DNA of 64,000 nt. Origin: Herbiconiux ginsengi (lineage in GTDB: Bacteria > Actinomycetota > Actinomycetes > Actinomycetales > Microbacteriaceae). A model generated the notes under the pieces. It was not told the origin of the DNA. It did not search any database and saw nothing but the letters and a program-made list of their open reading frames with translations. The DNA lies in NCBI RefSeq assembly GCF_900107435.1, contig NZ_FNPZ01000004.1:310001-374000 (forward strand). Reading direction: 5' to 3'. This document shows positions 6,224 to 34,239 of this stretch, piece by piece. The translations under genes were made by a program, and so were the position numbers. Each line of letters opens with the position of its first letter. The first letter of the stretch is position 1.

Positions 6224-7165
6224 TCACGCCGGGGAGTCCGTGGATCGCCGGCCGCCGTGTTCGATCGTGGGCGGTCGACCGGGCGCGGCATCGTGCACAC
6301 GGTCGCTCACGACGACCACGGGCACGTCGAGGTTCTGGATGAGTTCGCGGCTGGCCGAGCCGAGCAGCAAACGGCTCAAGGTGCTCCGGCTCCGGCATCC
6401 CACGACGACGAGTTCGGGAAGGGGCGACGCGAGAAGCAACGACCGGACCGTGTACCCGTGCACCGCCTGCGCGGTCACCGTGAGCAGGGGGAAGGCGTCG
6501 CGCACCACGGCTGCGGCGTCGGACGCGATCTGCTGGTGCTGCCGGGTGACCTCATCCAGGTAGTCGTCGTCGATGGTCTCGTCGTCGAAGACGTACGCCT
6601 CCTGCCACAGAGGCGGCTCCAGCCAGGCGTTGACGAGCCGGAGTTCCACGTCACGCAGCTGTGCCTCGGATGCGGCGAGAAGAGCCGCTCTGAGAGATGC
6701 CGGAGAACCGTCGACCCCGGCGACGACGCCGGAGCGGATGCCTGTCACCCGTCGCGGAATGATCGCGACAGGACCCAGCGCGCGTGCTGCGACCCTGCTG
6801 CCGACCGACCAGGAAAAGCGGAGGTGGGGCACGGTTCGGGCTTCGGTCCCGATGACCAGAAGAGTGTCGGGATCGGTGTACCGGCGAAGGGTCGTGACAG
6901 GATCCCCGATCACGGACCGGCTCGACACCGTCGCTCGTGGCAGCAGGCGCCGCACCCGGTCCACGTCGTCAGGGCTCGGTGCCGTCGCGGTGTCGTAGGC
7001 GCCGGGATCGCCGGGGTCACCCGAGACGTAGGTGATCTCGTCGATCACGTGCGCGAGCTCGAACTCGTGTCCGTCGTCTTCCCGTCGCGCGCGGTCGATC
7101 GCCCAGTCCACGGCGGCACGGCACGTCGCCGATCCGTCCCAGGCGACCACGGTCCGTTCGCTCAT
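6224..7165 (-). CDS. Universal stress protein, tandem-domain
   Basis: 313 residues with two Usp domains (about 4-145 and 152-300). N-terminus MSERTVVAWDGS is the strand-loop start of domain 1; a second start-like segment GVVAGVDGSPASLRAALLAA opens domain 2. The C-terminal nucleotide loop reads VVGCRSRSTLSRLLLGSAS, so the second glycine of the ATP-binding G-2X-G-9X-G(S/T) motif is serine. ATG 7165 has a GAGGGAGG ribosome site; longer in-frame starts lie in the promoter. It is a close paralogue of the USP genes at 27894 and 33152. First gene of the DevR-type island, preceded by a DevR-like box at 7229-7242. Confidence 0.9.
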   Translation of the reverse strand: MSERTVVAWDGSATCRAAVDWAIDRARREDDGHEFELAHVIDEITYVSGDPGDPGAYDTATAPSPDDVDRVRRLLPRATVSSRSVIGDPVTTLRRYTDPDTLLVIGTEARTVPHLRFSWSVGSRVAARALGPVAIIPRRVTGIRSGVVAGVDGSPASLRAALLAASEAQLRDVELRLVNAWLEPPLWQEAYVFDDETIDDDYLDEVTRQHQQIASDAAAVVRDAFPLLTVTAQAVHGYTVRSLLLASPLPELVVVGCRSRSTLSRLLLGSASRELIQNLDVPVVVVSDRVHDAAPGRPPTIEHGGRRSTDSPA

Positions 7166-7228
7166 CGCGCCTCCCTCGCCCTCCTCGTGGCCACGGGACA
7201 AGGGTGGCGCGGCACGTCGTGCGGTGCA

Positions 7229-7242
7229 GGGACGAAGGTCAC
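7229..7242 (-). promoter_or_regulatory. DevR/DosR-like box for usp (7165)
   Basis: Reading on the minus strand the site is GTGACCTTCGTCCC, one half-site of the island consensus GGGACCTTCGGCCC degenerate. A candidate -10 CACCCT lies 22 nt further downstream (7206-7201). The box is 63 nt from the ATG. Confidence 0.6.
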
Positions 7243-7255
7243 ACCGATCGCCGAC

Positions 7256-7269
7256 GGGACTTTCGACCC
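7256..7269 (+). promoter_or_regulatory. DevR/DosR-like box for adh-ATPase-antiporter operon
   Basis: GGGACTTTCGACCC, identical to the box at 13320 and close to the mycobacterial DosR consensus TTSGGGACTWWWGTCCCSAA. Candidate -10 AAATGT at 7292-7297 (22 nt spacing). Ninety nt before the ATG at 7360. Confidence 0.7.
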
Positions 7270-7359
7270 GAGACGACCCCGGTCGTCGTGGAAATGTCGA
7301 CGGTGACGAGGTCCGACCCGTCGTGAAACATCTTTCCGCGCACCGATCGAAGGAAGACC

Positions 7360-8370
7360 ATGAAAGCCGCTGTCGTCGCCTCATTCACCGCACCGCTGGA
7401 GATCCTCGAGCGGAGCATCCCGGAGCCGGCCGAAGGCGAGGTGCTCGTGCGGCTGGAGACCTGCGGACTGTGTCACACCGACATCCACGCCGCCCACGGC
7501 GACTGGCCGGTCAAGCCGACCGTGCCCTTCGTGCCCGGACACGAGGGTGTCGGGATCGTCGAGAAGCTCGGAGCGGGCGTGACCGATCGCACCGTGGGGG
7601 AACGCGTGGCGATCCCGTGGCTCGGGTATGCCTGCGGCGAATGCCGTTACTGCATCGACGGACGCGAGACCCTGTGCGAGCGTCAGCAGAACAGCGGATA
7701 CTCCATCGACGGCGCCTTCGCCGAGTACGCGGTGGCCAGTGCCCGCTACGTCGTTCCGGTGCCGGAGGGCATCACCTCGCTGGATGCCGCGCCCTTGACC
7801 TGTGCCGGGGTGACGACCTACAAGGCGCTGAAGGTCGCACACATCGTCCCCAGCGAGAAGGTCGCGGTGTTCGGCGTCGGCGGGCTCGGTCACCTGGCGG
7901 TGCAGTACGCACGCATCCTCGGCGGCTCCGTGATCGCCGTCGACATCGAGAACCCCAAGCTCGACCTGGCACGCGAGCTGGGCGCGGACCACGTGGTCAA
8001 CGCGGCCGAGGTCGACCCGGTCGACGCGATCAAGGCGATCGGAGGAGCGGATGTCGCGGTGGTGCTGGCCGCCTCGCCGCGCGTCTTCGAGCAGGCCTTC
8101 GCCTCGCTGAACCGTGGCGGCCGATTGATCTGCGTCGCCCTCCCGGCCGACCAGGAGATGAGCATCTCGATCTTCGAGACGGTGCTGAAGGGCATCTCGG
8201 TGATCGGATCGATCGTGGGCACCCGGCAGGACCTGTCCGAGGTGTTCGCGCTGCACGCGGCAGGCCGCACGAAGATCATCGCCGAGACCCGCACTCTCGA
8301 CCAAGTCAACGAGGCCATCGCCGAGGTGCTCTCCGGGCAGGTGCTCGCGCGACTGGTCTTCGAGTTCTGA
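7360..8370 (+). CDS. Zinc-dependent alcohol dehydrogenase (AdhP-like)
   Basis: 336-residue medium-chain NAD-dependent alcohol dehydrogenase, oxidising alcohols or reducing aldehydes. Catalytic zinc ligands Cys38 (CGLCHTD) and His61-Glu62 (GHEG), structural-zinc cluster CGECRYCIDGRETLC, and Rossmann motif GVGGLGHLA are all present; the short 336-residue length fits the bacterial AdhP/ADH-HT type. ATG follows GAAGGA. It is the first gene of an operon with the Mg-type P-ATPase (10-bp gap) and antiporter, under a DevR-like box. A role in fermentative NADH reoxidation during oxygen limitation would fit the context (inference). Confidence 0.92.
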   Translation: MKAAVVASFTAPLEILERSIPEPAEGEVLVRLETCGLCHTDIHAAHGDWPVKPTVPFVPGHEGVGIVEKLGAGVTDRTVGERVAIPWLGYACGECRYCIDGRETLCERQQNSGYSIDGAFAEYAVASARYVVPVPEGITSLDAAPLTCAGVTTYKALKVAHIVPSEKVAVFGVGGLGHLAVQYARILGGSVIAVDIENPKLDLARELGADHVVNAAEVDPVDAIKAIGGADVAVVLAASPRVFEQAFASLNRGGRLICVALPADQEMSISIFETVLKGISVIGSIVGTRQDLSEVFALHAAGRTKIIAETRTLDQVNEAIAEVLSGQVLARLVFEF

Positions 8371-8379
8371 CCGGGTTCC

Positions 8380-11019
8380 ATGACACGCGTCGACACGCCG
8401 CCGGCTCCGGTCGCGATGCTCCGTGCCGCGGCGCAGGTTTCCCCGGGTGAGGCACTGGGATTGATGCGCTCCGATCCGACGGGCCTGACGTCGGCCGAAG
8501 CCGCTCGGCGGCTGGCCTCGATCGGCCCGAACGCGCTCCGGACGCACCGGGTGCGGCCCTGGCGGGTTCTGGGCCGTCAACTGAAGAGCCCGATCCTGCT
8601 GCTCTTGTTCGTGACGGCCGGCATCTCGGTGTTCGTCGGCGAGAGCACCAACGCGGTCATCATCGGCGTGATCCTCGTGGCCAGCATCGGGTTGGGATTC
8701 GTCAACGAGTTCCGCGCCGAGCGTGCGGCCGACGCGCTGCACGACCAGGTCAGGCATCTGGTCGTCACCCTCCGTGACGGCGCGCCCGTGGAGGTCGACG
8801 TGACGCAGCTCGTGCCGGGGGACGTCGTGCGACTCTCGATCGGCGCGGTCGTTCCGGCGGACTGCCGCATCCTCGACAGCCGGGGCCTCTCCTGCGAGGA
8901 GGGCATCCTCACCGGGGAGTCGCTCCCCGTGGCGAAGTCCGCTGCGCCCACCACCCCGGATGCGGGCGTCGGCGACCTGACCTCGTGCGTGCTGATGGGA
9001 ACGGTGATCCAGTCCGGCAACGCCACGGTGGTCGTGGTGGACACCGGCCCGAGGACCGAGTTCGGGCGGATCGCTGTCGGCCTCGGGACGGTCCCGCCGC
9101 AGACCGAGTTCCAGCGCGGGCTCGGGCGCTTCTCCCTGCTGCTGCTCGAGGTGGCCGTCGTGCTGACCACGCTGATCTTCATCGCGAACGTCTTGCTGCA
9201 GCGGCCGGTGATCGATTCGCTCCTGTTCTCGCTGGCGATCGCGGTCGGTATCACCCCTCAACTGCTCCCCGCGATCGTCAGCGCGAGCCTCGCCACCGGC
9301 TCGCGGGCTCTGGCGAAGAAGAAGGTGCTCGTCAAACGGCTGGTCTGCATCGAAGACCTCGGTGACCTGGACATGCTCGTGACCGACAAGACCGGCACCC
9401 TCACCGAAGGGCGGATCCGCTTCGAATCGGCTGTGCCGACCGTCGGATGCAGCGCCGACGAGGTCTTCCGGCTCGGACTGCTCGCCACCGAGACCGACTA
9501 CTCCCGGATGCCGGTGTCGACCGTCGGCTTGAACGCACTCGATGCCGCGCTCTGGGAGGCTGTGGCGGGAGCGTCGGGACAGCCGCTATCGGAACTCGCG
9601 CGGCGGGTCGACCTGCTTCCGTTCGACCATGAGCGTCGTCGCACGAGCGCTCTGGTCGACGACCCGCGTTCCGGGCGCCTGATGGTGACGAAAGGTGCTC
9701 CGGAGGATCTCCTCCGTTGCTGCGCCGACGTGCCCGCATCGGCGCACGCGCTGCTCGAGGAGCAGTACGCGGCCGGCGCGCGGGTGGTGGCCGTCGCCCA
9801 CAAGCCCCTGCCGGGTGCGGCCACGCTGTCGGGCGACGACGAGGCAGGCCTCCACCTCGACGGCTTCCTGGTGTTCCTCGATCGGCCCAAGGCCGACGCC
9901 CGTCGATCGTTGGAGACGCTCGCCGCCCTCGGCGTCACCGTGAAGATCGCCACCGGCGACAGCGCCGTCGTGGCCGAGAAGGTGCTCGCCGACGTCGGGA
10001 TCGTATCCGGCGGAACCTTGACCGGGAGCGAGATCGACGCGCAGGACGACGACACGCTACGCACCGCGGCGGCGACCGTCACCGTCTTCGCCCGGGTCTC
10101 GCCCGAACAGAAGGCGCGCGTCATCCGGCTGCTGCGGCATTCCGGCCGTTCCGTCGGATTCCTGGGCGACGGCGTCAACGATGCTCTCGCCCTGCATCAG
10201 GCCGACATCGGCATCTCGGTGGAGTCCGCCGCCGACGTCGCCAAAGACGCGGCCGACGTGCTGCTCCTCGACAAGGACCTCGGCGTTCTGGCCGACGGGG
10301 TGACCGAAGGGCGCCGGATCTTCGCCAACACCATCAAGTACGTGCTGATGGGCACGTCGAGCAACTTCGGCAACATGTTCAGCGCCTCGGTCGCCTCGGT
10401 CGTGCTGCCCTTCCTCCCGATGCTGCCGGGCCAGATCCTGCTGAACAATCTGCTCTACGACGCCGGCCAGCTCGCGATCCCCGGCGACCGAGTCGATCGG
10501 GAGCAGTTGCTCGCACCCTCGCACTGGGACATCCGGTACATCCGTCGTTTCATGTTCGTGTTCGGACCGATCAGCTCGCTGTTCGACTTCGCCACCTTCG
10601 CGCTCATGATCGTCGTGTTCCACGCCGCCGAGAGCGAGTTCCAGGCCGGCTGGTTCATCGAGTCGATCGCCACTCAGACCCTCATCATCTTCGCCATCCG
10701 CACCCGGCGCGTGCCGTTCCTGCGCAGCCGTCCCTCGCTCGGGCTCCTCCTCGCCGCCGCGGGTGTCGTGGCGATCGGGGTCTGGCTTCCGTACTCGCCC
10801 GTCTCGGGGCTCCTGGGGTTCCAGCCCCTTCCGGCACCGTTCTTCCTGGCGCTGGTGGGGATGGTCGTGACGTATCTGGTGATGGTCGAGATCGCGAAGA
10901 AGTGGTTCTACGCCCGGCTGGCGCAGCAGCCGGTGCCTGGGCGCGTCACCCGGGTGCGGGGATACCGCCACCGCGTGAGCCGGCGTGCCGCACGATTCTC
11001 CGTCCGTTCCTCCGGCTGA
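8380..11019 (+). CDS. P-type cation ATPase, MgtA/CtpF-like
   Basis: 879-residue membrane pump of the P-type ATPase family. N-terminal cation-ATPase domain (about 20-90), actuator TGES (LTGESLPVAKS), phosphorylation site Asp336 in DKTGTLT, and hinge GDGVNDALALHQADIGISVE. The sequence LGDLDMLVTDKTGTLTEG and PFDHERRRTS resemble magnesium-translocating MgtA-type pumps; substrate could also be Ca2+. In M. tuberculosis a cation ATPase (CtpF) belongs to the DosR regulon, which agrees with the position here. Ten bp after adh and 30 bp before the antiporter. Confidence 0.88.
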   Translation: MTRVDTPPAPVAMLRAAAQVSPGEALGLMRSDPTGLTSAEAARRLASIGPNALRTHRVRPWRVLGRQLKSPILLLLFVTAGISVFVGESTNAVIIGVILVASIGLGFVNEFRAERAADALHDQVRHLVVTLRDGAPVEVDVTQLVPGDVVRLSIGAVVPADCRILDSRGLSCEEGILTGESLPVAKSAAPTTPDAGVGDLTSCVLMGTVIQSGNATVVVVDTGPRTEFGRIAVGLGTVPPQTEFQRGLGRFSLLLLEVAVVLTTLIFIANVLLQRPVIDSLLFSLAIAVGITPQLLPAIVSASLATGSRALAKKKVLVKRLVCIEDLGDLDMLVTDKTGTLTEGRIRFESAVPTVGCSADEVFRLGLLATETDYSRMPVSTVGLNALDAALWEAVAGASGQPLSELARRVDLLPFDHERRRTSALVDDPRSGRLMVTKGAPEDLLRCCADVPASAHALLEEQYAAGARVVAVAHKPLPGAATLSGDDEAGLHLDGFLVFLDRPKADARRSLETLAALGVTVKIATGDSAVVAEKVLADVGIVSGGTLTGSEIDAQDDDTLRTAAATVTVFARVSPEQKARVIRLLRHSGRSVGFLGDGVNDALALHQADIGISVESAADVAKDAADVLLLDKDLGVLADGVTEGRRIFANTIKYVLMGTSSNFGNMFSASVASVVLPFLPMLPGQILLNNLLYDAGQLAIPGDRVDREQLLAPSHWDIRYIRRFMFVFGPISSLFDFATFALMIVVFHAAESEFQAGWFIESIATQTLIIFAIRTRRVPFLRSRPSLGLLLAAAGVVAIGVWLPYSPVSGLLGFQPLPAPFFLALVGMVVTYLVMVEIAKKWFYARLAQQPVPGRVTRVRGYRHRVSRRAARFSVRSSG

Positions 11020-11049
11020 CCGGCAGGGTCCGTCTGTCACAATCATGCC

Positions 11050-12186
11050 GTGACCTTCTCCTTGCTGGCTCTCCTGGTGCTCGTGGGTCTCCTCGGCCCG
11101 CTGCTCGCCGCGCGCGCCGCATGGCGGATCCCGGTCGTGGTCGGAGAGCTGGCCGGCGGAATCGTCATCGGGGTGTCCGGATTCCAGCTGGTCGACCCGA
11201 CGGCCGACGATCTGCGCTTTCTGGCGAACATCGGATTCGGCCTGACCATGGTCGTCGTCGGGTCGCAGATCCCCGTTCGAGACCCGGCCGTACGGGCCGC
11301 CCTCGGCCGGGGCGCCGCGGGCGCGGCTCTCGTCGGCGTCGCCGCCGCGGTGCTCGGCACGCTGATCGCGGTCGGTTTCGGCACCGGGCACGCAGCGGTC
11401 TACGGAGTCGTCCTCGCATCGTCGTCGGCGGCCCTGGTGCTTCCCATGCTGCGATCGGTCGGGCTCAGGACGGTCTCGGTGACGCACCTGGTGGCGCAGA
11501 TCGCGATCGCCGACGTGGTGTGCATCATCGCCCTGCCCTTGCTCCTGGCTCCGGCGCGGGCGCCGCTCGCGGCGCTCGGCGCGACGGCGATCGTGGGCGT
11601 CGTCGTCGTTGTCGTGTTCGTGCTCGACAAGGTGGTGGGTACCCGCGTCCGGCGGCGACTGCACGAGTACTCGGAGCGGCGACGATTCGCCCTGGAACTG
11701 CGGTTCAGTCTGCTGACGCTGTTCGGACTGGCGGCGATCGCCCAGTTCGCCGGCCTGTCGATCATGATCGCCGGTTTCGCGCTCGGTCTGGCGCTCGCCG
11801 CGATCGGTGAGCCTCGACGATTGGCCCGGCAGTTGTTCGGCATCACGGAAGGGTTCTTCGGACCGCTGTTCTTCGTCTGGCTGGGTGCATCACTGAATCT
11901 TCAGGCCTTCGTGGCGCATCCGGAGATGATCCTGCTGGGTGTCGCCCTCGGCCTCTCGGCGGCGGTCGCCCACCTGCTCAGCCGGGTCGTCCGTCTTCCC
12001 GTTCTTCAAGCACTCGCCTCGGCCGGACAGCTCGGTGTGCCCGTCGCCGCCGTCACCCTGGGACTCCAGACCGGAGCTCTCGCGCCGGGAGAAGACGCTG
12101 CGATCCTCCTGGGTGCCCTCATCACCGTGGCGGTGGCCGCCGGCGCGACGGGCGCGCTCAGCCGTCGGATGCGCCCGACCGGGTAG
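11050..12186 (+). CDS. Cation:proton antiporter (CPA2 / KefB-type)
   Basis: 378-residue integral membrane protein with about 11-12 hydrophobic segments filling nearly the whole length; no C-terminal TrkA/RCK domain, so it is the bare exchanger domain. N-terminal segment WRIPVVVGELAGGIVIG is typical of Na+/H+ or K+/H+ exchangers of the CPA2 group. Starts at GTG 11050; the nearby ATG at 11045 is out of frame. Third gene of the adh-ATPase operon; it ends 4 bp from the convergent pyridoxamine-oxidase-like gene. Ion and pH homeostasis under non-growing conditions is the likely role. Confidence 0.85.
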   Translation: MTFSLLALLVLVGLLGPLLAARAAWRIPVVVGELAGGIVIGVSGFQLVDPTADDLRFLANIGFGLTMVVVGSQIPVRDPAVRAALGRGAAGAALVGVAAAVLGTLIAVGFGTGHAAVYGVVLASSSAALVLPMLRSVGLRTVSVTHLVAQIAIADVVCIIALPLLLAPARAPLAALGATAIVGVVVVVVFVLDKVVGTRVRRRLHEYSERRRFALELRFSLLTLFGLAAIAQFAGLSIMIAGFALGLALAAIGEPRRLARQLFGITEGFFGPLFFVWLGASLNLQAFVAHPEMILLGVALGLSAAVAHLLSRVVRLPVLQALASAGQLGVPVAAVTLGLQTGALAPGEDAAILLGALITVAVAAGATGALSRRMRPTG

Positions 12187-12189: not shown

Positions 12190-12612
12190 TCAATACCGCT
12201 CCGGTTCGGGCCCACGGCGGAAATGGCGTCCTGACAACGAATCGGCTGTGATTCGCACGTACTCGTACTTGAGCGTGGGAATCCACGGGGTCAGCGGTTC
12301 GGCGTCGGCTTCGTCGATCTCGCTTCGGCGCTCCAGCCGGTGCGCGGGGCCCTTGAGCACCACGCTCCACGCGTCGTCATCGGTGTAGCCGTCGATCTCG
12401 AAGGCAACCTCCTGCGCGATCACGAGTTCGAGCAGCTTCGTGCCCGGTGCCGTGCGGATCAGGATCGAGTCCGGCTCGGCCAGGTAGTTGACCGGGAAGA
12501 TGTCGATCTCACCGCCGGCGCTGATCGCGAGGCGGCCCAGCTGGTGCGAACGCAGATACTCCCAGCATTCCTCGACGCTCAGTTCGCGCACGTCGCCTTC
12601 GCCTTGCCACAT
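12190..12612 (-). CDS. Pyridoxamine 5'-phosphate oxidase-like flavin/F420 protein
   Basis: 140-residue split-barrel protein. The segment LGRLAISAGGEIDIFPVNYLA followed by ILIRTAPGTKLLEL is characteristic of small FMN/F420/haem-binding members of this fold. ATG 12612 has an AGAGGAG site 6 nt upstream; an in-frame Met 12 codons upstream lacks one and nearly touches the preceding gene. Cotranscribed with the flavodoxin-like gene 19 bp upstream. A paralogue is at 30426. Biochemical reaction not deducible. Confidence 0.85.
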   Translation of the reverse strand: MWQGEGDVRELSVEECWEYLRSHQLGRLAISAGGEIDIFPVNYLAEPDSILIRTAPGTKLLELVIAQEVAFEIDGYTDDDAWSVVLKGPAHRLERRSEIDEADAEPLTPWIPTLKYEYVRITADSLSGRHFRRGPEPERY

Positions 12613-12631
12613 GATCGTCTCCTCTGCTCGT

Positions 12632-13195
12632 TCAGCCCTCGTCGGCACCGCGGTCGACGGTTGTCAGGAGCTGCGACGCCTGCACGGCCAGCGACTCACC
12701 CCAGGCGCGGGCCCGGGCGAGTTCGTCGTCCTCCAGGTGGTTGTCCTTGGTGACGAGGAAGTTCTCGCTCTCGGTGACCCGGCGGCTTCCGCGATGGCGG
12801 AGGGCGCGGTCGATCTGGGCGGCGGCGTTGCCGCTCAGAAGGACCGGCACGTCGGCGCGGGTCGCGAAGGCCGCGAACATCGGGGCCACGACCGTCATCG
12901 GGTCGTCGGACCAGTCGCGGATCCCGCGGCCCGGCGCATCCGGTTCGAGGGTGAGATGCTTGCTCGGGTCCGTGGTCCAGGCGACGGCTTCCTCTCGCGT
13001 GCGAGCACGGGTCATTCCGTGCACATGGGTGGGGCCACCCACCACCATGAGGTCGGCGTGACCGGCGTCGTCCATGCTGAGCTGATTGACGTTGGCCAGG
13101 TCCGCGGTCGCGTGGGCGGCCAATCCGTCACGGATCGCCTCGGCGACGGCTCGCGTGTTTCCGAACATCGATTCGTAGATCACCAGTGCCCTCAT
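12632..13195 (-). CDS. Flavodoxin-domain protein
   Basis: 187 residues. N-terminus RALVIYESMFGNTRAVAEAI is the phosphate-binding loop of flavodoxins, and VVGGPTHVHGMT corresponds to the second FMN loop. Likely FMN-binding electron carrier or regulator acting in the cytoplasm. First gene of a two-gene operon with the pyridoxamine-oxidase-like protein, suggesting a flavin-based redox pair. A DevR-like box lies 56 nt upstream at 13252-13265. A fused relative occurs at 21439. Confidence 0.88.
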   Translation of the reverse strand: MRALVIYESMFGNTRAVAEAIRDGLAAHATADLANVNQLSMDDAGHADLMVVGGPTHVHGMTRARTREEAVAWTTDPSKHLTLEPDAPGRGIRDWSDDPMTVVAPMFAAFATRADVPVLLSGNAAAQIDRALRHRGSRRVTESENFLVTKDNHLEDDELARARAWGESLAVQASQLLTTVDRGADEG

Positions 13196-13251: not shown

Positions 13252-13265
13252 GGGCATTTGGTCCC
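13252..13265 (-). promoter_or_regulatory. DevR/DosR-like box for flavodoxin operon
   Basis: On the minus strand GGGACCAAATGCCC; -10 candidate GAGTCT at 13228-13223, exactly 23 nt downstream of the box. Start codon is at 13195. Confidence 0.65.
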
Positions 13266-26982: not shown

Positions 26983-27489
26983 TCAGCCGGCCGCACCGGC
27001 CGCAGCGGGCGGAACGGCGACGACTCGGTCTTCGGGGAGGTAGTAGGTGACGACGGTCTGCCATTCCGAAGGAGGGCTGCTGCTTCCAGGACCGACGAGG
27101 TACTGCTCCGTCATGGTGCCGGGTTCGCCGAGCCCGTGGGTGGTCATCCACGAGTGGAGTTCGTCGTAGGTGTCACCGAGGTCGTCGTACGCACCGTGGT
27201 GCACCGCGGTCACCGCGCGTCCCGCGGGCAGGGTGACCGACTGCACGGTCTCGTCGTGGGCGGCCGCCGGCTCGACGGGGAATCCGGCGAGCACGTCGAC
27301 AGCGTCGGGAGTGGCCGCGAAGTACACCGCGATGGGTGCGCCGGCAGGAACGGTGCCCCGCGAGCGGAGCGCATCCTGAGCGACCGGCAACGCTCGCGCG
27401 AAGAAGGCCTGCAGGTCGGTGAAGGGAACCCAGGATCTGCTCCCCGCGACCGTCACCGACGGCACGATCAGTTCCGTGATCGAGGTCAT
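26983..27489 (-). CDS. GyrI-like small-molecule-binding domain protein
   Basis: 168 residues resembling the effector-binding (GyrI/AraC-type) fold: N-terminal TVAGSRSWVPFTDLQAFFARAL, middle PIAVYFAATPDAVDVLAGFPV, VTAVHHGAYDDLGDTYDEL, and TEQYLVGP. No DNA-binding domain is attached, so it probably senses or sequesters a small molecule. ATG 27489; weak ribosome site. Between the DUF805 gene (14-bp gap) and the membrane protein gene. Confidence 0.75.
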   Translation of the reverse strand: MTSITELIVPSVTVAGSRSWVPFTDLQAFFARALPVAQDALRSRGTVPAGAPIAVYFAATPDAVDVLAGFPVEPAAAHDETVQSVTLPAGRAVTAVHHGAYDDLGDTYDELHSWMTTHGLGEPGTMTEQYLVGPGSSSPPSEWQTVVTYYLPEDRVVAVPPAAAGAAG

Positions 27490-27503
27490 GTGTCTGCTCG
27501 CTT

Positions 27504-27887
27504 TCAGATGACGGGGTCGGCGAGGGCGCCGTGCGGTGCGGTGCCCAGCACGGGCGGCCGCGGTGCGTCGCAGAGGTGCACGATCAACACGATGAGTCCG
27601 GCGATCGGGAGCAGCAGCCAGAACAGCTCGGCCCACGACCGTCCCGCGTCGCGCAGCCGGCGCACCGTGACTGCGAGTGTCGGAAGGAGTGCGGCGACCG
27701 ACCAGACCCCGGAGATGCTCGAGCCCACGAGGAACGTGCCCTCGGGAGTCGCGACGTTGAAGGAGTTGAGAGCGGCGCTCACGAGGGCGGTGAAGAGGAT
27801 CCACCACCAGAACTCCGGCCGGGATGCGCGCCCGGTGAAGGTGGCGTAGTTCGTGAATCCTGCGCGGATGGCGTCGGGGAAGTTCAT
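27504..27887 (-). CDS. DUF805 family membrane protein
   Basis: 127 residues. N-terminus with FTGRASRPEFWWWILF and central VTVRRLRDAGRSW are the conserved signatures of DUF805 inner-membrane proteins; three to four transmembrane helices. Function of the family is unknown. Six bp downstream of the USP gene, so cotranscribed. Confidence 0.85.
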   Translation of the reverse strand: MNFPDAIRAGFTNYATFTGRASRPEFWWWILFTALVSAALNSFNVATPEGTFLVGSSISGVWSVAALLPTLAVTVRRLRDAGRSWAELFWLLLPIAGLIVLIVHLCDAPRPPVLGTAPHGALADPVI

Positions 27888-27893
27888 GGCTCG

Positions 27894-28805
27894 TCACCCC
27901 ACCTGCTCGAACACACGTGCCGTGCGGTCGACGTCGATGTCGACGTCGCGCACCCGGTCGCTGACGACCACCACGGGCACGTCGAGATTGAGGATGAGTT
28001 CATGGCTGGCGGAGCCGAGCACGAAGCGGTTCATCGCGCTGCGGCTCCGACAGCCCACGACCACCAGCTCGGGCAGGGGCGAGAACTCGAGCAGTGCGTG
28101 GACGGCGTGGCCGCGCACGGTGCTGGCCGTCATCGCGAGGCCCGGATGGCGCCGCTTCACGACGACTTCGATGTCGCGCACCACCCCCTCGTGCTGGAGC
28201 GCGATCTCGTCGAGGATCTCTTCGTCGTACACGTACGCCTCCTGCCAGATCGCCGGCTCCATCCAGGCGTGCACCAGGTGCAGGGGGACGCCGCGGAGCT
28301 GGGCCTCCTCGGCGGCGAAGAGCGCTGCGCGGAGGGACGTCTCCGATCCGTCCACGCCGGCGACGATCCCCCGGCGGGCGCCGGTGATCTGGTGCGGGAC
28401 GATGGCGACCGGTCCGAGCGCCGAAGCCGCCAGCCGAGAACCGAGCGACCAGGCGAAGCGACGATGCGGAAAGTCTCTCGTGTGCGTGCCGACGACGAGG
28501 AGCGTCGTCGGGTCGGTGTAGCGACGAAGGGCGTTGAGCGTGTCCCCGATGACGATCTCGCCGGTGACACGATGCTCCGGGAGTTCCTGCCGGACACGAG
28601 CTGCCTCATCGGCGACCGCTGCACCTGCGGCATCGAATTCTTCGGGCCCTATCGTCTTGCCGGGAACCAGGCTGACTTCGTCGGTCACGCTCACCAGCAC
28701 CAGCTCAGCCGTGCTGTCCAGATGCCGGGAGCGCGCCACCGCCCAGTCGAGAGCGGAACGGCTCTCCGCCGTGCCGTCCCAGGCCACCACTGTGCGCTGA
28801 TTCAT
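27894..28805 (-). CDS. Universal stress protein, tandem-domain
   Basis: 303 residues, two Usp domains (about 3-140, 150-290). Begins MNQRTVVAWDGTAESRSALDWAV; second domain GIVAGVDGSETSLRAALFAA; loop VVGCRSRSAMNRFVLGSAS. Close paralogue of the USPs at 6224 and 33152 (same start motif, shared LRRYTDP and WQEAYVYD-type segments). ATG 28805 selected; an ATG 8 codons upstream lacks a better ribosome site. First gene of a four-gene leftward operon with box at 28883. Confidence 0.9.
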   Translation of the reverse strand: MNQRTVVAWDGTAESRSALDWAVARSRHLDSTAELVLVSVTDEVSLVPGKTIGPEEFDAAGAAVADEAARVRQELPEHRVTGEIVIGDTLNALRRYTDPTTLLVVGTHTRDFPHRRFAWSLGSRLAASALGPVAIVPHQITGARRGIVAGVDGSETSLRAALFAAEEAQLRGVPLHLVHAWMEPAIWQEAYVYDEEILDEIALQHEGVVRDIEVVVKRRHPGLAMTASTVRGHAVHALLEFSPLPELVVVGCRSRSAMNRFVLGSASHELILNLDVPVVVVSDRVRDVDIDVDRTARVFEQVG

Positions 28806-28882: not shown

Positions 28883-28896
28883 GGGCCGAAGGTCCC
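28883..28896 (-). promoter_or_regulatory. DevR/DosR-like box for usp (28805) operon
   Basis: On the minus strand GGGACCTTCGGCCC, identical to the boxes at 16522 and 28919. -10 candidate GACGCT at 28859-28854, exactly 23 nt downstream. Confidence 0.75.
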
Positions 28897-28918: not shown

Positions 28919-28932
28919 GGGACCTTCGGCCC
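28919..28932 (+). promoter_or_regulatory. DevR/DosR-like box for BON-BON-PNPOx operon
   Basis: GGGACCTTCGGCCC; -10 candidate CACCGT at 28957-28962, 24 nt downstream; first ATG at 29006. Together with 28883-28896 it forms a 50-bp near-perfect inverted repeat separated by a CG-only centre. Confidence 0.73.
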
Positions 28933-29005
28933 TACTCCGCCGCACCGCCGGGGGCGCACCGTTGTGGTGTCGGTGCCGAACGTGCACCCCGGTGAGGAGA
29001 TGATC

Positions 29006-29680
29006 ATGACGGCCACGCAGACGTCCACCTACACGGATGCTCAAGTGAAACAGATGGTGGAGGACGAACTCCGTTGGACGCCCCAGATCGACGCCGCCAC
29101 CATCGGGGTCAGCGTCAAGGATGGCGCGGTGACGCTCACCGGCGAGGTCGATTCGTTCCTCTGGCGGCACCTCGCCGCGAAGGCTGCTCTGCGGGTGCGG
29201 GGCGTGCGCTCGGTCGCGAACGACGTCACCGCGAAGAACGCGTTCTCGCCGATCGACGACACGGACATCGCCGAAGCGATCCAGCACACGCTCCGTTGGA
29301 CGGCCGGTCTGCCCGACGGATCGATCGATGCGGAGGTCACGAACGGCAATGTGATCCTGACCGGCAGCGTCGCCTGGGACAGCCAGCGGCGCGCCGCCGA
29401 GAAGCAGGTACGCCAGATCAAAGGCGTGCATTGGGTCGACGACCGGGTCACGCTCGCCCCGCGGGTCTCCTCGTTCGAAGCCCACAAGCACATCACGGAT
29501 GCGTTGAAACGGAACGCCCTCACCGACGCCGCTCGGATCGACGTCGTCGTCGACGGCACCCGCGTCACGCTGACCGGAACGGTCGCGTCCTACGACGAGT
29601 TCCGCCAGGCGGAACGCGCCGCCTGGTCGTCCCCGCATGTCACCGAGGTGAGGAACGACCTCACCGTCCAGCCGCGCTGA
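29006..29680 (+). CDS. Triple-BON-domain protein
   Basis: 224 residues with three BON repeats like the protein at 20760 (DAATIGVSVKDGAVTLTGEV, GSIDAEVTNGNVILTGSV, ARIDVVVDGTRVTLTGTV). No signal peptide seen. ATG 29006 has GAGGAG 6 nt upstream; an ATG two codons earlier is too close to that site. First gene of the rightward operon BON-BON-PNPOx-small membrane protein. Confidence 0.85.
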   Translation: MTATQTSTYTDAQVKQMVEDELRWTPQIDAATIGVSVKDGAVTLTGEVDSFLWRHLAAKAALRVRGVRSVANDVTAKNAFSPIDDTDIAEAIQHTLRWTAGLPDGSIDAEVTNGNVILTGSVAWDSQRRAAEKQVRQIKGVHWVDDRVTLAPRVSSFEAHKHITDALKRNALTDAARIDVVVDGTRVTLTGTVASYDEFRQAERAAWSSPHVTEVRNDLTVQPR

Positions 29681-29717
29681 CCGTGCGGCCGGCCCGCCGA
29701 ACCGAAGGAGAACGACC

Positions 29718-30401
29718 GTGTCTCTCACCGTAACGCCGACCAGGCACGACATCGCCGTGCAGGATGCGGTCGGGGCCGAGCTGGCTTGGCGACCGAATGT
29801 CGATGCCCGTCACGTGTCCGTGACCGTCTCCGACGGCATCGTCCTGCTCACCGGAACCGTGTCGACTCTGGGTGAACGCCGAGCCGCCGTCCGAGCCGCT
29901 CAGTCGGTGTCCGGTGTCGTCACCGTCATCGATGAGATCGTGGTGCAGCCACCCGGCACGACCACCCTCAGCGACGCCGAGCTCGCGAAACGGGTCGACG
30001 CCGCGCTGCGGTGGCACGCCGCTGCGATCGGCCAGAACATCCGGGCGGAAGTGGTGCACGGACGGGTCCTGCTGACGGGAATGGTCGAAGCGGACTGGCA
30101 ACGGCGCTCCGTCGAACGCTTCGTGGGATCTCTCGAGCATGTGGTCGGCGTCACCGACGAGATCGTCGTGACCCCGCGCCCGTGCCCGCCCGATCTTCAG
30201 GACCAGGTCGTCTCCGCGCTGCGGCGGCAGAGCGGGCTCGACGTGGGGAAGATCAGCGTCAACGTGCACGACGGGGAGGTGCGGCTCGGCGGCATCGTCT
30301 CGACGGTCGCCCAGCGGCTCACCGCGTCGCGCGTCGCCGCCGCGCACCCGGCCGTTCGCGCGGTCCGGAACAACATCCGCGTCATCCCCGACCTCATCTG
30401 A
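29718..30401 (+). CDS. Triple-BON-domain protein
   Basis: 227 residues, three BON repeats (DARHVSVTVSDGIVLLTGTV, QNIRAEVVHGRVLLTGMV, GKISVNVHDGEVRLGGIV). GTG 29718 follows GAAGGAGAACGACC. Located 37 bp after its paralogue, which suggests tandem duplication followed by divergence. Likely acts with its neighbour at the envelope or as a ligand-binding stress protein. Confidence 0.85.
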   Translation: MSLTVTPTRHDIAVQDAVGAELAWRPNVDARHVSVTVSDGIVLLTGTVSTLGERRAAVRAAQSVSGVVTVIDEIVVQPPGTTTLSDAELAKRVDAALRWHAAAIGQNIRAEVVHGRVLLTGMVEADWQRRSVERFVGSLEHVVGVTDEIVVTPRPCPPDLQDQVVSALRRQSGLDVGKISVNVHDGEVRLGGIVSTVAQRLTASRVAAAHPAVRAVRNNIRVIPDLI

Positions 30402-30425
30402 ACCGAGCAGAACGGACCCTCCACG

Positions 30426-30917
30426 ATGACCGACAACCCGTACTTCCTGACGCCCCGGCCGGAGGCCGCGCCCAGCACGGTCGAATCCCTCGACATGACC
30501 GAATGCTGGGAGCTCCTCCGTTCGAACGAGATCGCCCGGCTCGCCGTCGTCGACGACCGCGGAGCGGACATCTTCCCGATCAACTACCTCGTGAACGACG
30601 GGGCCGTCTTCTTCCGGAGCGCTCCAGGAACGAAGATCGTGAGTCTCACGGAGCACCCGGGCGTCGCCCTGGAGACCGACGGCACCGCCGCGCGGAAGCG
30701 GTGGAGCGTCGTCGTGCGGGGAGACGCGCGTCGACTCGACGTCGACACGGAGATCGAGGCTTCTGGAGTCCAGGACCTCCCGACCCTGACCGGCACGGAG
30801 AAGTGGAACTACTTCCGCATCACGCCCCGCACGGTGACCGGGATCCGATTCCGCGCTGTTCCGCACGCGGAGGCATCCGTTCGATCGGTTGCGTCGGTCG
30901 ACGAGGGAGACGACTGA
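30426..30917 (+). CDS. Pyridoxamine 5'-phosphate oxidase-like protein
   Basis: 163 residues, split-barrel flavin-binding fold: MTECWELLRSNEIARLAVVDDRGADIFPINYLV and FFRSAPGTKIVSL match the protein at 12190. Such proteins bind FMN, F420 or haem; a member (Rv3129) is a DosR-regulon gene in M. tuberculosis. Downstream of the two BON genes with a 24-bp gap; stop shares one base with the next ATG. Confidence 0.87.
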   Translation: MTDNPYFLTPRPEAAPSTVESLDMTECWELLRSNEIARLAVVDDRGADIFPINYLVNDGAVFFRSAPGTKIVSLTEHPGVALETDGTAARKRWSVVVRGDARRLDVDTEIEASGVQDLPTLTGTEKWNYFRITPRTVTGIRFRAVPHAEASVRSVASVDEGDD

Positions 30918-31185: not shown

Positions 31186-32487
31186 TCAGAAGCCGCTCGG
31201 CGCGGTCTCGAACTCCGGTTCCACGGGTGGGGCTTCGTGGTGCAGAGGCCGGAGCGCGGAGGTCTTCTTGAACCACACCAGAGCGTCGTAGCGCTCGCCC
31301 ATCACGGTCGGCACGTAGTTGCCGAGCTCGGCCTCCGGCCGATAGACGACCCCGATGGCTCGGTGCCCGCGTCGTTCGCCGAGCCAGGGACCTGCTGGAT
31401 CATCGACGAACGACAACACGGCATCGCTCTGCAGAGCGCGGCCGAGGAGGTCCTCGTGGCTGTTCGGCCGGGCGACGGGCACGACTCGCACCGTCTCGGG
31501 CACCCCCCACGCGTCGGCCGCCAGAACGGTGCCGTAGCTGCACGCCTGGCCGATCAGGAACACCTCCGGCCCGGGATGACGCTGCCGCAGGAGTTGTCCC
31601 ACATTGACCAGACCGCCGGCCGCCATGTCGGTGGCCCGGGCATCGCCGACGTGGGTGTTGTGCTCCCACACGACACCGCGGGCACCCGTGCCGTGGTGTT
31701 GCCGGATGCGGTCGATGGTGTCGGTCATGTGGATGTCGCGCACGTTCCAGGAATCGCGGTCGCCGCGCATCATGGCCCGGTAGTACTCCTCCGCGCCGGC
31801 GGCGACGTGCGCGTTCTGCACCGCATCGAAGGCATCCTCGTCGGAGTCGCCGGCGGTGCTGAGGAGTACGGCGGTGAGCAGGGAGGTGACCTCGTCTTCG
31901 CAGGATTCCGGCACCAGCCGCGTCGCCCATCCGTACGCTTGCGGGTCCTGATGGAAGGGGAGGAAGCACGCCCAGGCCCGTTCCGCCTCCTCGAGGGCTT
32001 CGGGGGCGTTGCGGGAGAGCCAGTCCATGATCCGGGCGAGCGAGTCCCAGAGCGAGTACACGTCGAGGCCGTAGAACGACACCTTGTCCGCAGCGGACCG
32101 GGAGCGGTTGAGGTCACGGAGCCAGTCGAGGAAGTCGGCCACATCGGCGTTGGCCCACAGCCAGGTGGGCCACCGTTCGAAGGAGGCGAGTTCGGCGCGG
32201 GCGTCGCGATCGGTGCCATCGAGGTCGTGCAGCCACCGGTTGATGCGCGCGCAGTCGGGCCAGTCCCCTTCGACGCCGATCCAGCGGAATCCGTGATCGC
32301 GCACCAGGCTCTTCGTGAACTCGGCTCGCCACCGGTAGAACTCGTGGGTGCCGTGCGAGGCTTCGCCGATGCACACGAGGGTGCTCTGCGAGGCCTGCCG
32401 GAGGAGCCCGGGGTCCTCGAGCGGCCGAGCGCGGGAGCGGATGTCGGCGAGCAGGGCGTGGGTGTGGGTGTCGGGGTTGCCGGTCAT
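31186..32487 (-). CDS. Erythromycin-esterase-family protein
   Basis: 433 residues. Motifs IGEASHGTHEFYRWRAEFTKSLV, VEGDWPDCARINRWL, WEHNTHVGDARAT and GQACSYGTVLAA are those of the erythromycin esterase/succinoglycan-biosynthesis-like family (EreA fold, histidine/glutamate catalytic). Many members are not resistance enzymes, and nothing here implies macrolide resistance. Its start overlaps the phosphoribosyltransferase stop by 4 nt. In M. tuberculosis the DosR gene Rv2030c encodes these two domains in a single chain; here they are two coupled genes. Confidence 0.88.
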   Translation of the reverse strand: MTGNPDTHTHALLADIRSRARPLEDPGLLRQASQSTLVCIGEASHGTHEFYRWRAEFTKSLVRDHGFRWIGVEGDWPDCARINRWLHDLDGTDRDARAELASFERWPTWLWANADVADFLDWLRDLNRSRSAADKVSFYGLDVYSLWDSLARIMDWLSRNAPEALEEAERAWACFLPFHQDPQAYGWATRLVPESCEDEVTSLLTAVLLSTAGDSDEDAFDAVQNAHVAAGAEEYYRAMMRGDRDSWNVRDIHMTDTIDRIRQHHGTGARGVVWEHNTHVGDARATDMAAGGLVNVGQLLRQRHPGPEVFLIGQACSYGTVLAADAWGVPETVRVVPVARPNSHEDLLGRALQSDAVLSFVDDPAGPWLGERRGHRAIGVVYRPEAELGNYVPTVMGERYDALVWFKKTSALRPLHHEAPPVEPEFETAPSGF

Positions 32488-33155
32488 GGTCGTCTTCCTT
32501 CAGGGTGTCGTCCGGAGATTCTCGAGACCGCCTCGTCGAGGGCTGCCACGACTTCGGCGTCGGTGGTCTGCCCGAAGTGCTCGTAGTGCTCGCCGACCGC
32601 TCGGAAGACGGTGGGCGTGCTGACGCACACGATCTCGTCGGCCTCGACGATCGTGGCGAGGGTGTCGCCGGACGCGACCGGAGCTGCGAGCACGATGTGC
32701 GCCGCGCCGAGGTCGCGGGCGGCGCGGCACGCGACCCGCGCGGTCGCTCCGGTCGCGATGCCGTCGTCGACGATGATGACGGTGCGCCCGGCGAGGGCCA
32801 GTCGCCGACGGCCAGGTCGCAGCGCGGCCTCGCGGGCTTCGAGCACGCGCCACTCCGCGGCTTCGACCTCGGCGAGTTCCGGGTCGGTGACGCCGCAGTT
32901 GCGGATGAGGTCCTGGTCGAGGTAGCGGATGCCGCCCTCGGCGATGGCGCCCATGGCCACCTCGGGCTGGAACGGAAGCCCGAGCTTGCGCACGAGGATC
33001 ACGTCCAGCGGGGCGTCGAGCATCGCTGCGACCTCCGCGGCGACGGGGACTCCACCCCGCGGCAACCCCAGCACGATGACGTCGCGGCCACGGAAACGGT
33101 CCAGACGCGCACCGAGCCTCCGCCCGGCGTCCCGACGATCACGGAACCGGTTCAT
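32484..33155 (-). CDS. Phosphoribosyltransferase-domain protein
   Basis: 223 residues, type I PRTase fold: PRPP loop VIIVDDGIATGATARVA and N-terminal VIVLGLPRGGVPVAAEVA. Base specificity not deducible. ATG 33155 overlaps the USP stop by 4 nt and its own end overlaps the esterase start by 4 nt, so three proteins are made from one tightly coupled mRNA. Confidence 0.88.
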   Translation of the reverse strand: MNRFRDRRDAGRRLGARLDRFRGRDVIVLGLPRGGVPVAAEVAAMLDAPLDVILVRKLGLPFQPEVAMGAIAEGGIRYLDQDLIRNCGVTDPELAEVEAAEWRVLEAREAALRPGRRRLALAGRTVIIVDDGIATGATARVACRAARDLGAAHIVLAAPVASGDTLATIVEADEIVCVSTPTVFRAVGEHYEHFGQTTDAEVVAALDEAVSRISGRHPEGRRP

Positions 33156-34066
33156 GAGGGGCCCCCGGCCGTCTGCGCGGTGGCGGGTTCGTTCTCGACG
33201 GGGAAGTCGTGCACCCGGTCGCTGACCACGATGACAGGCACGTCGAGGTTGAGCACGAGTTCGTGGCTGGCCGATCCCAGCACGAGGCGGTTCATCGCGC
33301 TGCGGCTGCGGCATCCGACCACCACGAGCTCCGGCAGCGGAGAGGCGTCGAGAAGGGTTCGCGCGGTGGGGCCGCGCACCGTTTCCGCGGTGACCGCGAG
33401 ATCCGGGAAGTTCCGTTCCACCACGCGCGCGGTGTCGCGCACGATGGTCTCGTGGTCGCGGGAGAGGATCGTGAGGCTGTCGTCGTCATAGGCGTAGTCG
33501 GCCTGCCAGACCGGCGGCTCCAGCCAGACATGCAGGAGGTGGAGCGGAACACCGCGGAGTCGCGCTTCGGCTGCTGCGAACAGGGCCGCCCTGGTCGAGG
33601 TGGCGGAGCCGTCGATTCCGGCGACGACGGTCGAGCGGTCACCGGTGACGTGACGCGGAACGATGGCCACCGGGCCGAGGGCCGTGGCGGCGAGGCGGGC
33701 TCCGATCGACCAGGCGAAACGGAAATGCGGATACGTCCGCGCTTGGGTTCCGACGACGACGAGGGTCTCCGGATCGGTGTACCGGCGGAGCGCGTTGAGC
33801 ACGTCGCCGATCACGATCTGGCTCGAGACCCGGGCGTCAGGTCGTTCGCGAGCCATCAGCCGCGCCGCGTCGTCGACGTTCCGCCGGGCGGCGTCGAAGT
33901 CCTCGGGGCCGATCGTGGTGCCGGGAATCAGACTCACCTCGTCGAGCACGCGCACGAGCACGACTTCCTGTCCGGCCGGAGCGTGCCCCGCCCGGTCGGC
34001 CGCCCACGCCAGCGCGGTGCGACTCTCGACGGAGTCGTTCCAGGCGACCACCGTTCGTCGAGTCAT
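33152..34066 (-). CDS. Universal stress protein, tandem-domain
   Basis: 304 residues, two Usp domains; MTRRTVVAWNDSVESRTALAWAA start, second domain STVVAGIDGSATSTRAALFAA, loop VVGCRSRSAMNRLVLGSAS with serine in place of the second glycine. Very similar in plan to 27894 and 6224. ATG 34066 follows AGGTGGGAGCG. First gene of the USP-PRTase-esterase operon, box 68 nt upstream. Confidence 0.9.
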   Translation of the reverse strand: MTRRTVVAWNDSVESRTALAWAADRAGHAPAGQEVVLVRVLDEVSLIPGTTIGPEDFDAARRNVDDAARLMARERPDARVSSQIVIGDVLNALRRYTDPETLVVVGTQARTYPHFRFAWSIGARLAATALGPVAIVPRHVTGDRSTVVAGIDGSATSTRAALFAAAEARLRGVPLHLLHVWLEPPVWQADYAYDDDSLTILSRDHETIVRDTARVVERNFPDLAVTAETVRGPTARTLLDASPLPELVVVGCRSRSAMNRLVLGSASHELVLNLDVPVIVVSDRVHDFPVENEPATAQTAGGPS

Positions 34067-34134
34067 CGCTCCCACCTTCTCTCCGGATCGCTGCGTCTCC
34101 CGCACAGGTTCTCGCTGGTGGTCGGCAGCGGCAA

Positions 34135-34148
34135 GGGGCGAAGGTCCC
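34135..34148 (-). promoter_or_regulatory. DevR/DosR-like box for USP-PRTase-esterase operon
   Basis: On the minus strand GGGACCTTCGCCCC; -10 candidate GAACCT at 34111-34106, 23 nt downstream. The distal half-site is part of a perfect 11-bp inverted repeat spanning 34143-34170 (GGTCCCGTGGC / GCCACGGGACC). This is the last box on the right of the island. Confidence 0.68.
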
Positions 34149-34239
34149 GTGGCGGTTCCGCCACGGGACCTCATCCCGCGTTCTTCCGATCAGGGCCGAA
34201 GCGCGACCAGCTCCGTCTCAGCGCGACGGGCGCCCACGA

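What the first reader, a model, noticed from the sequence alone, without database searches (positions are those of the whole stretch)
6224..34175. A complete DosR/DevR-type regulon island with a box before every operon
Seen: eleven 14-bp sites of the form GGGAC(C/T)TTCGRCCC (7229, 7256, 13252, 13320, 16522, 20658, 20680, 26336, 28883, 28919, 34135) lie 52-92 nt before the first gene of all twelve transcription units of this stretch; I found none in the rest of the window. They match the DosR consensus TTSGGGACTWWWGTCCCSAA. In the middle sits a DevR with the DNA-contacting Lys179/Lys182/Asn183 unchanged. Known: in mycobacteria the DosR regulon contains USPs, a cation ATPase, PNPOx-like and PRTase/esterase proteins, but is scattered over the genome. 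Inference: here the whole regulon is one contiguous, self-contained hypoxia/dormancy module outside mycobacteria.
Basis: partly seen in the sequence, partly recalled or inferred. Interest (0 to 1): 0.88.

Follow-up and report, generated by a model that had tools for sequence, protein, structure and literature searches.

The report
DevR low-oxygen regulon island
A 28-kb block of stress genes in an actinobacterium carries the same switch sequence in front of its operons and encodes the matching gas-sensor-type kinase and regulator; this kind of island is already known from Streptomyces, so it is a well-supported new example rather than a new system.

Summary
All 11 boxes exist; with a matrix built from the other ten, each outranks every window position outside the island. 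They lie 52-92 nt before the first genes of 12 transcription units; 5 of 11 fit GGGACYTTCGRCCC exactly. The regulator is a DevR orthologue; its kinase keeps DosT/DevS GAF-A motifs. Of 199 family genomes, exact boxes occur in 53 of 73 with DevR and 13 of 126 without.

Added detail: the box is polar. It faces its gene in 11 of 11 window cases; in relatives 18 of 18 close pairs at 13 bits are back-to-back (two exceptions seen otherwise). A -10-like NANNNT lies 22-24 nt behind 11 of 11, and exactly 23 nt behind 83 of 200 boxes from relatives: class II activator geometry.

A contiguous DevR-type island outside mycobacteria was published for Streptomyces (OsdR, SCO0167-SCO0219) with the same box core (PMC5069765). 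It is not self-contained: three promoter-like boxes lie elsewhere in the genome. The box before devSR points away from devSR. Relatives carry similar islands, one on a plasmid. New member of a known kind.

The parts
14076..14711 (-). DevR/DosR/OsdR-type response regulator (211 aa)
   Evidence: phmmer best hit 3c3w DevR, 3.8e-73, aligned without gaps over 1-208; D8, D9, D54, T82, K104, K179, K182, N183 present; only one close copy in the genome, the next match being 40% identical
14708..16429 (-). DevS/DosT/OsdK-type sensor kinase (573 aa): two GAF domains, HisKA_3, HATPase
   Evidence: Pfam; GAF-A best hit 2vzw, 3.6e-45, with GFPxHHPPM and FGNLYLT kept; C-terminal part matches 3zxq DosT, 1.8e-17
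7229..7242 (-). box toward USP1
7256..7269 (+). box toward the ADH / P-type ATPase / Na+-H+ exchanger operon
13252..13265 (-). box toward the flavodoxin-PNPOx operon (AAA core)
13320..13333 (+). box toward a 225-aa protein without Pfam match
16522..16535 (+). box between devSR (-) and usp2 (+); oriented toward usp2
   Evidence: away from devS in 13 of 13 relatives in which a box was found there
20658..20671 (-). box toward the beta-CASP metallo-hydrolase / heavy-metal P-type ATPase operon (AAA core)
20680..20693 (+). box toward the BON / flavodoxin-USP operon
26336..26349 (-). box toward USP4 / ADH3 / 146-aa protein / USP3 / ADH2 operon
28883..28896 (-). box toward USP5 / DUF805 / GyrI-like / 204-aa protein operon
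28919..28932 (+). box toward BON2 / BON3 / PNPOx2 operon
34135..34148 (-). box toward USP6 / phosphoribosyltransferase / erythromycin-esterase-like operon
6224..7165 (-). tandem universal stress protein (USP1)
   Evidence: Pfam Usp 2.5e-27, two stretches; start
7360..12186 (+). operon: zinc alcohol dehydrogenase (7360-8370), P-type cation ATPase (8380-11019), Na+/H+ exchanger (11050-12186)
   Evidence: Pfam
12190..13195 (-). operon: flavodoxin (12632-13195), PNPOx-like (12190-12612)
   Evidence: Pfam
13386..14063 (+). 225-aa protein, no Pfam or NCBIfam match
16601..17404 (+). tandem USP2
   Evidence: Pfam, two stretches; start
17379..20593 (-). operon: beta-CASP metallo-hydrolase (19220-20593), heavy-metal P-type ATPase (17379-19277)
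   Evidence: Pfam, NCBIfam
20760..22458 (+). operon: BON-domain protein, flavodoxin-USP fusion (21424-22458)
   Evidence: Pfam; first start
22426..26249 (-). operon: USP4, zinc ADH3, 146-aa protein without Pfam match, USP3, zinc ADH2
   Evidence: Pfam
26351..28805 (-). operon: USP5, DUF805, GyrI-like, a protein without Pfam match
   Evidence: Pfam; first start
29000..30917 (+). operon: BON2, BON3, PNPOx2
   Evidence: Pfam; first start
31186..34066 (-). operon: USP6, phosphoribosyltransferase, erythromycin-esterase-like
   Evidence: Pfam; first start

Best explanation
This is a DevR/DosR/OsdR-type regulon island. Inferred: a haem-GAF kinase (DevS type) senses low O2, NO or CO and phosphorylates DevR at Asp54. 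Inferred from orthology: the DevR~P dimer binds the 14-bp box. Shown by sequence: the box is a polar imperfect palindrome (GGGAC half distal, GGCCC half proximal to the gene) and a NANNNT -10-like hexamer lies 22-24 nt behind it. Counting the hexamer as -12 to -7 puts the box at about -49 to -36, centre about -42.5. Inferred from that: DevR~P recruits RNA polymerase as a class II activator and stands in for a good -35 element. The units of the island would then be induced together: universal stress proteins, cation and metal P-type ATPases, Na+/H+ exchanger, zinc dehydrogenases, flavodoxins, PNPOx, BON proteins, a beta-CASP metallo-hydrolase. This would support survival without growth at low oxygen. 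The devSR operon itself may have its own promoter, because the neighbouring box points the other way.
For: Leave-one-out matrix test 11 of 11. DevR and kinase orthology with key residues and motifs. Exact box in 53 of 73 DevR+ and 13 of 126 DevR- family genomes, Fisher p 1.6e-19, uncorrected for relatedness. Box matrix in 80 DevR neighbourhoods: 90 sites at 16 bits or more in 46 of 80 loci, against a mean of 4.9 and a maximum of 19 for 40 column-permuted matrices. NANNNT at exactly 23 nt in 8 of 11 window boxes and within 22-24 nt in 11 of 11; in 20,000 shuffles the highest count at one offset was 5. In relatives (87 loci, 12 bits) 83 of 200 boxes have it at 23 nt, mean over offsets 6.2, no such peak on the other side. 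Polarity in relatives: 18 of 18 close pairs -/+, and 53 toward against 12 away in codirectional gaps. Published: OsdR~P binds such boxes (PMC5069765) and the proximal DevR site overlaps -35 at analysed target promoters (PMC3029386, passages).
Against: No expression or binding data for this organism. Only 38 of 103 exact boxes of the other DevR+ genomes lie within 30 kb of DevR, so contiguity is not the family rule. 54 of 179 matrix hits in relatives fall inside predicted genes, and 12 of 65 codirectional ones face away. At 10, 12 and 14 bits the real matrix counts (295, 180, 128) do not exceed the largest permuted control (1349, 577, 152), though they exceed the means. Two close pairs break the back-to-back rule: +/+ at L031 4790/4830 (seen at 12 bits) and -/- at L189 8983/9037. 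Sites from related species are not independent.
Confidence: 0.9

Rival explanations
1. The boxes belong to another regulator (another NarL/LuxR-type response regulator, or the LuxR-type AAA regulator at 36815), and DevR is only a neighbour.
For: The DevR search gives 40 matches in this genome, DevR itself and partial ones included; no binding data exist.
Against: Box and DevR co-occur across the family (53 of 73 against 13 of 126). The box core is in the published OsdR regulon table. Lys179, Lys182, Asn183 are kept.
Confidence: 0.05
2. The shared boxes are inherited with duplicated usp promoters rather than maintained for a common regulator.
For: Boxes stand before several usp genes, which are paralogues (12 of 16 Usp domain copies of the genome are in the island).
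Against: Boxes with the same -10 spacing stand before non-homologous genes (ADH, flavodoxin, beta-CASP protein, BON) and before three distant genes; apart from box and -10 the 11 promoters share little sequence.
Confidence: 0.04
3. The island is DevR-controlled but serves a broader general-stress or stationary-phase role, not chiefly hypoxia or NO.
For: No nitrate reductase family was among the Pfam hits of the scanned island ORFs; in S. coelicolor OsdR also controls development (PMC5069765).
Against: The kinase GAF-A keeps motifs of the DosT/DevS haem GAF; the osdR region of S. coelicolor is reported to be induced by low oxygen and an NO donor (PMC5069765 discussion).
Confidence: 0.25

Closest known systems
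OsdKR core regulon of Streptomyces coelicolor (SCO0167-SCO0219), PMC5069765
   Same: Contiguous island of usp, zinc dehydrogenase and PNPOx genes around a DevR/DevS-type pair; boxes before most units; AGGGACCTTCGGCCCC box before SCO0167 and SCO0216
   Different: Streptomyces island has nar2, a nitroreductase and a Crp-like gene, and a more symmetric consensus box (AGGGCCGATCGGCCCT). Here: flavodoxins, BON proteins, beta-CASP protein, Na+/H+ exchanger, kinase gene before regulator gene, box facing away from devSR. I did not test box polarity in S. coelicolor.
DevR/DosR-DevS/DosT regulon of Mycobacterium tuberculosis
   Same: Orthologous regulator and kinase sensor domain, 5-4-5 box layout, box at the -35 region, usp genes
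DevSR islands of Frondihabitans sp. PAMC 28766 (plasmid NZ_CP014514.1) and Leifsonia sp. 71-9 (L099)
   Same: devS-devR order; usp, BON, PNPOx and zinc ADH genes in both; boxes with NANNNT at 22-24 nt in 15 of 23 and 3 of 4 matrix hits
   Different: Gene content differs; the Frondihabitans copy is on a 213-kb plasmid and carries IS elements

Membership tests
DevR/OsdR-type response regulator | NarL-family receiver + GerE domains, orthologous to DevR, with Asp54 and Lys179/Lys182/Asn183 | tested here: met
DevS/DosT/OsdK kinase | GAF-A with haem-ligand motif, second GAF, HisKA_3/HATPase | tested here: met
   Pfam finds two GAF stretches, HisKA_3 and HATPase; GFPxHHPPM and FGNLYLT aligned to solved DosT/DevS GAF-A chains. 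That 2vzw is DosT and that the His is the haem ligand are recalled.
DevS/DosT/OsdK kinase | binds haem and responds to O2/NO/CO | not testable with these tools
   needs protein
DevR/OsdR regulon | DevR-type box before target units | tested here: met
DevR/OsdR regulon | box overlaps or abuts the -35 region of a promoter | tested here: met
   at sequence level only: -10-like hexamer 22-24 nt behind box, 11 of 11; starts not mapped
DevR/OsdR regulon | autoregulation through a box upstream of the regulator operon | tested here: inconclusive
   one shared box 92 nt upstream, oriented away; TAGAGT 25 nt behind it on the devS side. Of 25 named loci with devS-devR order, a box was found upstream of devS in 13, facing away in 13; none in 12. 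In 12 other loci, mostly Micromonosporaceae, a box about 36 nt before devR faces devR.
DevR/OsdR regulon | regulator binds the boxes; genes induced together | not testable with these tools
   needs experiment
Contiguous OsdR-type island | usp-rich gene cluster around devSR, boxes concentrated there | tested here: met
   5 of 7 exact boxes and 12 of 16 Usp domain copies of the genome
Complete, self-contained regulon | no target outside the island | tested here: not met
   at sequence level: three extra-island intergenic boxes with a -10-like hexamer at 22-24 nt

The most novel reading that the evidence does not exclude
DevR islands of actinobacteria are portable hypoxia/dormancy modules built on one polar promoter cassette (oriented box, 23 nt, -10). 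The cassette is placed back-to-back between divergent operons, the island moves between chromosome and plasmids, and where the gene order is devS-devR (as here) the regulator operon lies outside the directional control of the neighbouring box, so this lineage's module would work feed-forward rather than by self-amplification.
Probability: 0.3. Interest if true: 0.55.

Novelty: new member of a known kind. Interest (0 to 1): 0.4.

Why it matters
A compact regulon in a non-mycobacterial actinobacterium gives a handy model for DevR control. The polarity and fixed spacing give a sharper rule for finding true DevR targets: of six extra-island hits with the box model, the three intergenic ones have the -10-like hexamer at 22-24 nt and the three inside open frames do not. 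The recurrence of such islands in relatives, once on a plasmid, suggests that the response can move as a module.

Tried and rejected
Rejected: chance motif; box bound by an unrelated regulator; 'first contiguous DevR island' (PMC5069765). The idea that boxes cluster near DevR in relatives was tested and not met: 43 of 110 exact boxes in DevR+ genomes lie within 30 kb of DevR on the same contig, 38 of 103 without this genome; broken contigs may lower this count (inference).

Limits: the genome-wide model searches scored only 150 of 2,687 and 150 of 9,209 first-look candidates. The box model R1 found 9 of the 11 island boxes at E <= 10, so its counts are lower bounds; R2 was built from the 11 window promoters, so their top ranks mean nothing. 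DevR presence means E <= 1e-60. G009 was counted as DevR- although L161 shows DevR and DevS matches, each in two pieces, and G009 has 6 exact boxes. Gene calls in relatives are a GC-position heuristic. Searches used 87 loci and left out boxes whose two strands scored within 3 bits; L163 was left out because it gave the same gene pattern as L029.

Literature: eight paper searches ran. I saw no report of the polarity or the 23-nt rule in what they returned, but I read only parts of two papers and most subscription papers are not held.
Full report
Observation. Five match GGGACYTTCGRCCC exactly, three have one mismatch and 7229 has two; 13252 and 20658 carry AAA in place of TTC and lie beyond two mismatches. 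With a matrix built from ten sites and the eleventh held out, no position outside the island reached the score of any held-out site, 11 of 11. The boxes lie 52-92 nt before the start codons of the units they precede. By gene order I count 12 units: five divergent intergenic regions (7229/7256, 13252/13320, 16522, 20658/20680, 28883/28919) and two single ones (26336, 34135).

Genes. Pfam finds seven genes with Usp domains (one of them a flavodoxin-USP fusion), two P-type ATPases, a Na+/H+ exchanger, three zinc dehydrogenases, a flavodoxin, two PNPOx proteins, three BON proteins, a beta-CASP metallo-hydrolase, a DUF805 protein, a GyrI-like protein, a phosphoribosyltransferase and an erythromycin-esterase-like protein. 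Three proteins (13386-14063, 24271-24711, and the one ending at 26351) have no Pfam match. Twelve of the 16 Usp domain copies found in the genome lie in the island.

Regulator and kinase. The regulator aligns without gaps to DevR of M. tuberculosis (3c3w, 3.8e-73) and keeps D54, K179, K182 and N183. It is the only close copy in the genome; the next match is 40% identical. The kinase has two GAF domains and a HisKA_3/HATPase module. Its GAF-A is closest to 2vzw (3.6e-45; DosT by recall) and keeps the GFPxHHPPM and FGNLYLT motifs; that these hold the haem ligand and a distal residue is recalled. Its C-terminal part matches DosT and DevS.

Genome-wide distribution. Seven exact boxes exist in 4.85 Mb, five of them in the island. 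The box model gives 15 places at E <= 10, nine in the island, with 150 of 2,687 candidates scored. Of the six others, three are intergenic by my gene calls: before a short-chain dehydrogenase (C12:38255), before a 261-aa protein without Pfam match (C2:347044), and before a protein with a sub-cutoff bactofilin match (C2:461465). Three lie inside open frames: C2:456974 and C2:1728310 and C11:192188, inside a 1031-aa frame that the heuristic had not listed. The three intergenic ones have NANNNT at 22, 23 and 24 nt; for C2:461465 one search prints 25 because I gave the start one base early, and 24 is the corrected figure. The three inside frames have none at the offsets 20-26 that one search examined. 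The longer model R2 adds weaker places that I did not look into.

Promoter geometry. Reading each box in its GGGAC-to-CCC direction, 11 of 11 point to the gene named in the parts list; the devSR unit is the one behind a box that faces the other way. NANNNT stands exactly 23 nt behind 8 of 11 boxes and within 22-24 nt behind 11 of 11; in 20,000 shuffles the highest count at any one offset was 5. In boxes from 87 loci of relatives, found with the box matrix alone, 83 of 200 have NANNNT at 23 nt (mean over offsets 6.2) at 12 bits, and 41 of 79 at 18 bits; the opposite side shows no such peak. In the same loci, at 13 bits, 18 of 18 close pairs are back-to-back (-/+), and in codirectional gaps 53 boxes face the next gene and 12 face away. 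Five of the 18 pairs come from Micromonospora and are probably one orthologous pair. Two exceptions: a +/+ pair in L031 (4790/4830), one box of which appears only at the lower threshold, and a -/- pair on the Frondihabitans plasmid (L189 8983/9037), where four other close pairs are -/+. If the hexamer is the -10 element, the box lies at about -49 to -36, as expected for a class II activator. For M. tuberculosis it is stated that the proximal DevR site overlaps the -35 element at the promoters analysed (PMC3029386, passages), so the position is as known; polarity and fixed spacing are what I add.

devSR. In 25 named loci (of 67 with a kinase match, of 80) the order is kinase then regulator. In 13 of these a box of 10 bits or more was found upstream of the kinase, and it faces away from it in 13 of 13; in 12 none was found. 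In the window the 16522 box likewise faces usp2, with a TAGAGT 25 nt behind it on the devS side. This argues against simple self-activation through this box but does not exclude it. Against a general rule: in 12 of the 80 loci, mostly Micromonosporaceae, a box about 36 nt before devR faces devR, with a TAGAAA-like hexamer 22-24 nt behind it, so devR is probably self-activated there.

Link to DevR. Of 199 family genomes, 73 have a DevR match at E <= 1e-60. Exact boxes occur in 53 of these 73 and in 13 of 126 others (Fisher p 1.6e-19, uncorrected for relatedness). Six of the 19 boxes in DevR- genomes belong to G009, which does have DevR and DevS matches, each in two pieces. The reversed control pattern gives about 40 matches by my hand count of the table, against 129 for the box.

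Relatives. DevR relatives were taken from 80 named loci, the best of 578; the nearest include Agromyces, Microbacterium, Lacisediminihabitans and other Microbacteriaceae, so the host is probably of that family (inference; for the placement of Lacisediminihabitans). In column-permuted controls the box matrix is enriched in these loci at 16 bits (90 sites in 46 of 80 loci; permuted mean 4.9, maximum 19), not clearly at lower thresholds. Similar islands are seen in Leifsonia sp. 71-9 (L099) and in G009 (L161/L162). On the 213-kb plasmid of Frondihabitans sp. PAMC 28766 a stretch of about 33 kb has devSR, five usp genes, four BON genes, PNPOx and zinc dehydrogenase genes and IS elements, and 23 matrix hits at 11 bits or more in the 40.6 kb fetched, 15 of them with NANNNT at 22-24 nt. 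The Rhodococcus plasmid pDK1 region has devR-devS order, two usp genes, a flavodoxin gene and 5 matrix hits, 2 with NANNNT. In all, 35 of 72,556 plasmid records hold a DevR relative at E <= 1e-50; I looked at these two.

Known work. The OsdKR system of S. coelicolor (PMC5069765; outline, passages, and the sections on OsdKR, the predicted regulon and the discussion read) has a core regulon around SCO0167-SCO0219. Eight sites control 20 of 22 genes between SCO0198 and SCO0219; the box AGGGACCTTCGGCCCC stands before SCO0167 and SCO0216; OsdR also binds mycobacterial DevR targets. In S. coelicolor a DevS/DevR system is also described as NO-dependent (PMC10552308, start of abstract in the listing). 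The finding is therefore a new member of a known kind, with different gene content and a sharper promoter rule.

Noticed in passing
window 21424-22458 (+): A flavodoxin-like domain (about residues 6-175) fused to a universal stress domain; in 11 loci of relatives (L029 and L163 look alike) tblastn found the flavodoxin part, and in none of the loci searched a match longer than 250 residues, so the fusion looks unusual.
   Followed up: partly
L189 (NZ_CP014514.1 153741-194358): A plasmid-borne DevSR island with usp, BON, PNPOx and ADH genes, many boxes and IS elements in Frondihabitans sp. PAMC 28766.
   Followed up: partly
L161/L162 (G009): A similar island in another genus with six exact boxes; DevR and DevS matches each fall in two pieces in this 86%-complete assembly.
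   Followed up: partly
window 24271-24711 (-): A 146-aa protein without Pfam match whose relatives (44-51% identical) occur in several DevR neighbourhoods (L024, L034, L099, L162, L164).
   Followed up: no
window 19220-20593 (-): Beta-CASP metallo-hydrolase with sub-cutoff similarity to the type VII Cas14 and aCPSF1 models (341.8 of 800 and 251 of 580.2 bits).
   Followed up: no
window 31186-33314 (-): Adjacent phosphoribosyltransferase and erythromycin-esterase-like genes; from memory these are fused in one DosR-regulon protein of M. tuberculosis.
   Followed up: no
G000:C12:38255, C2:347044, C2:461465: Three promoter-like boxes outside the island, before a short-chain dehydrogenase, a 261-aa protein and a protein with a weak bactofilin match.
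   Followed up: partly
L058, L060, L069, L072, L076, L077, L080, L092, L093, L095, L096, L103: A box about 36 nt before devR faces devR, with TAGAAA-like hexamer 22-24 nt behind it, which puts the start of transcription close to the start codon (perhaps leaderless).
   Followed up: partly
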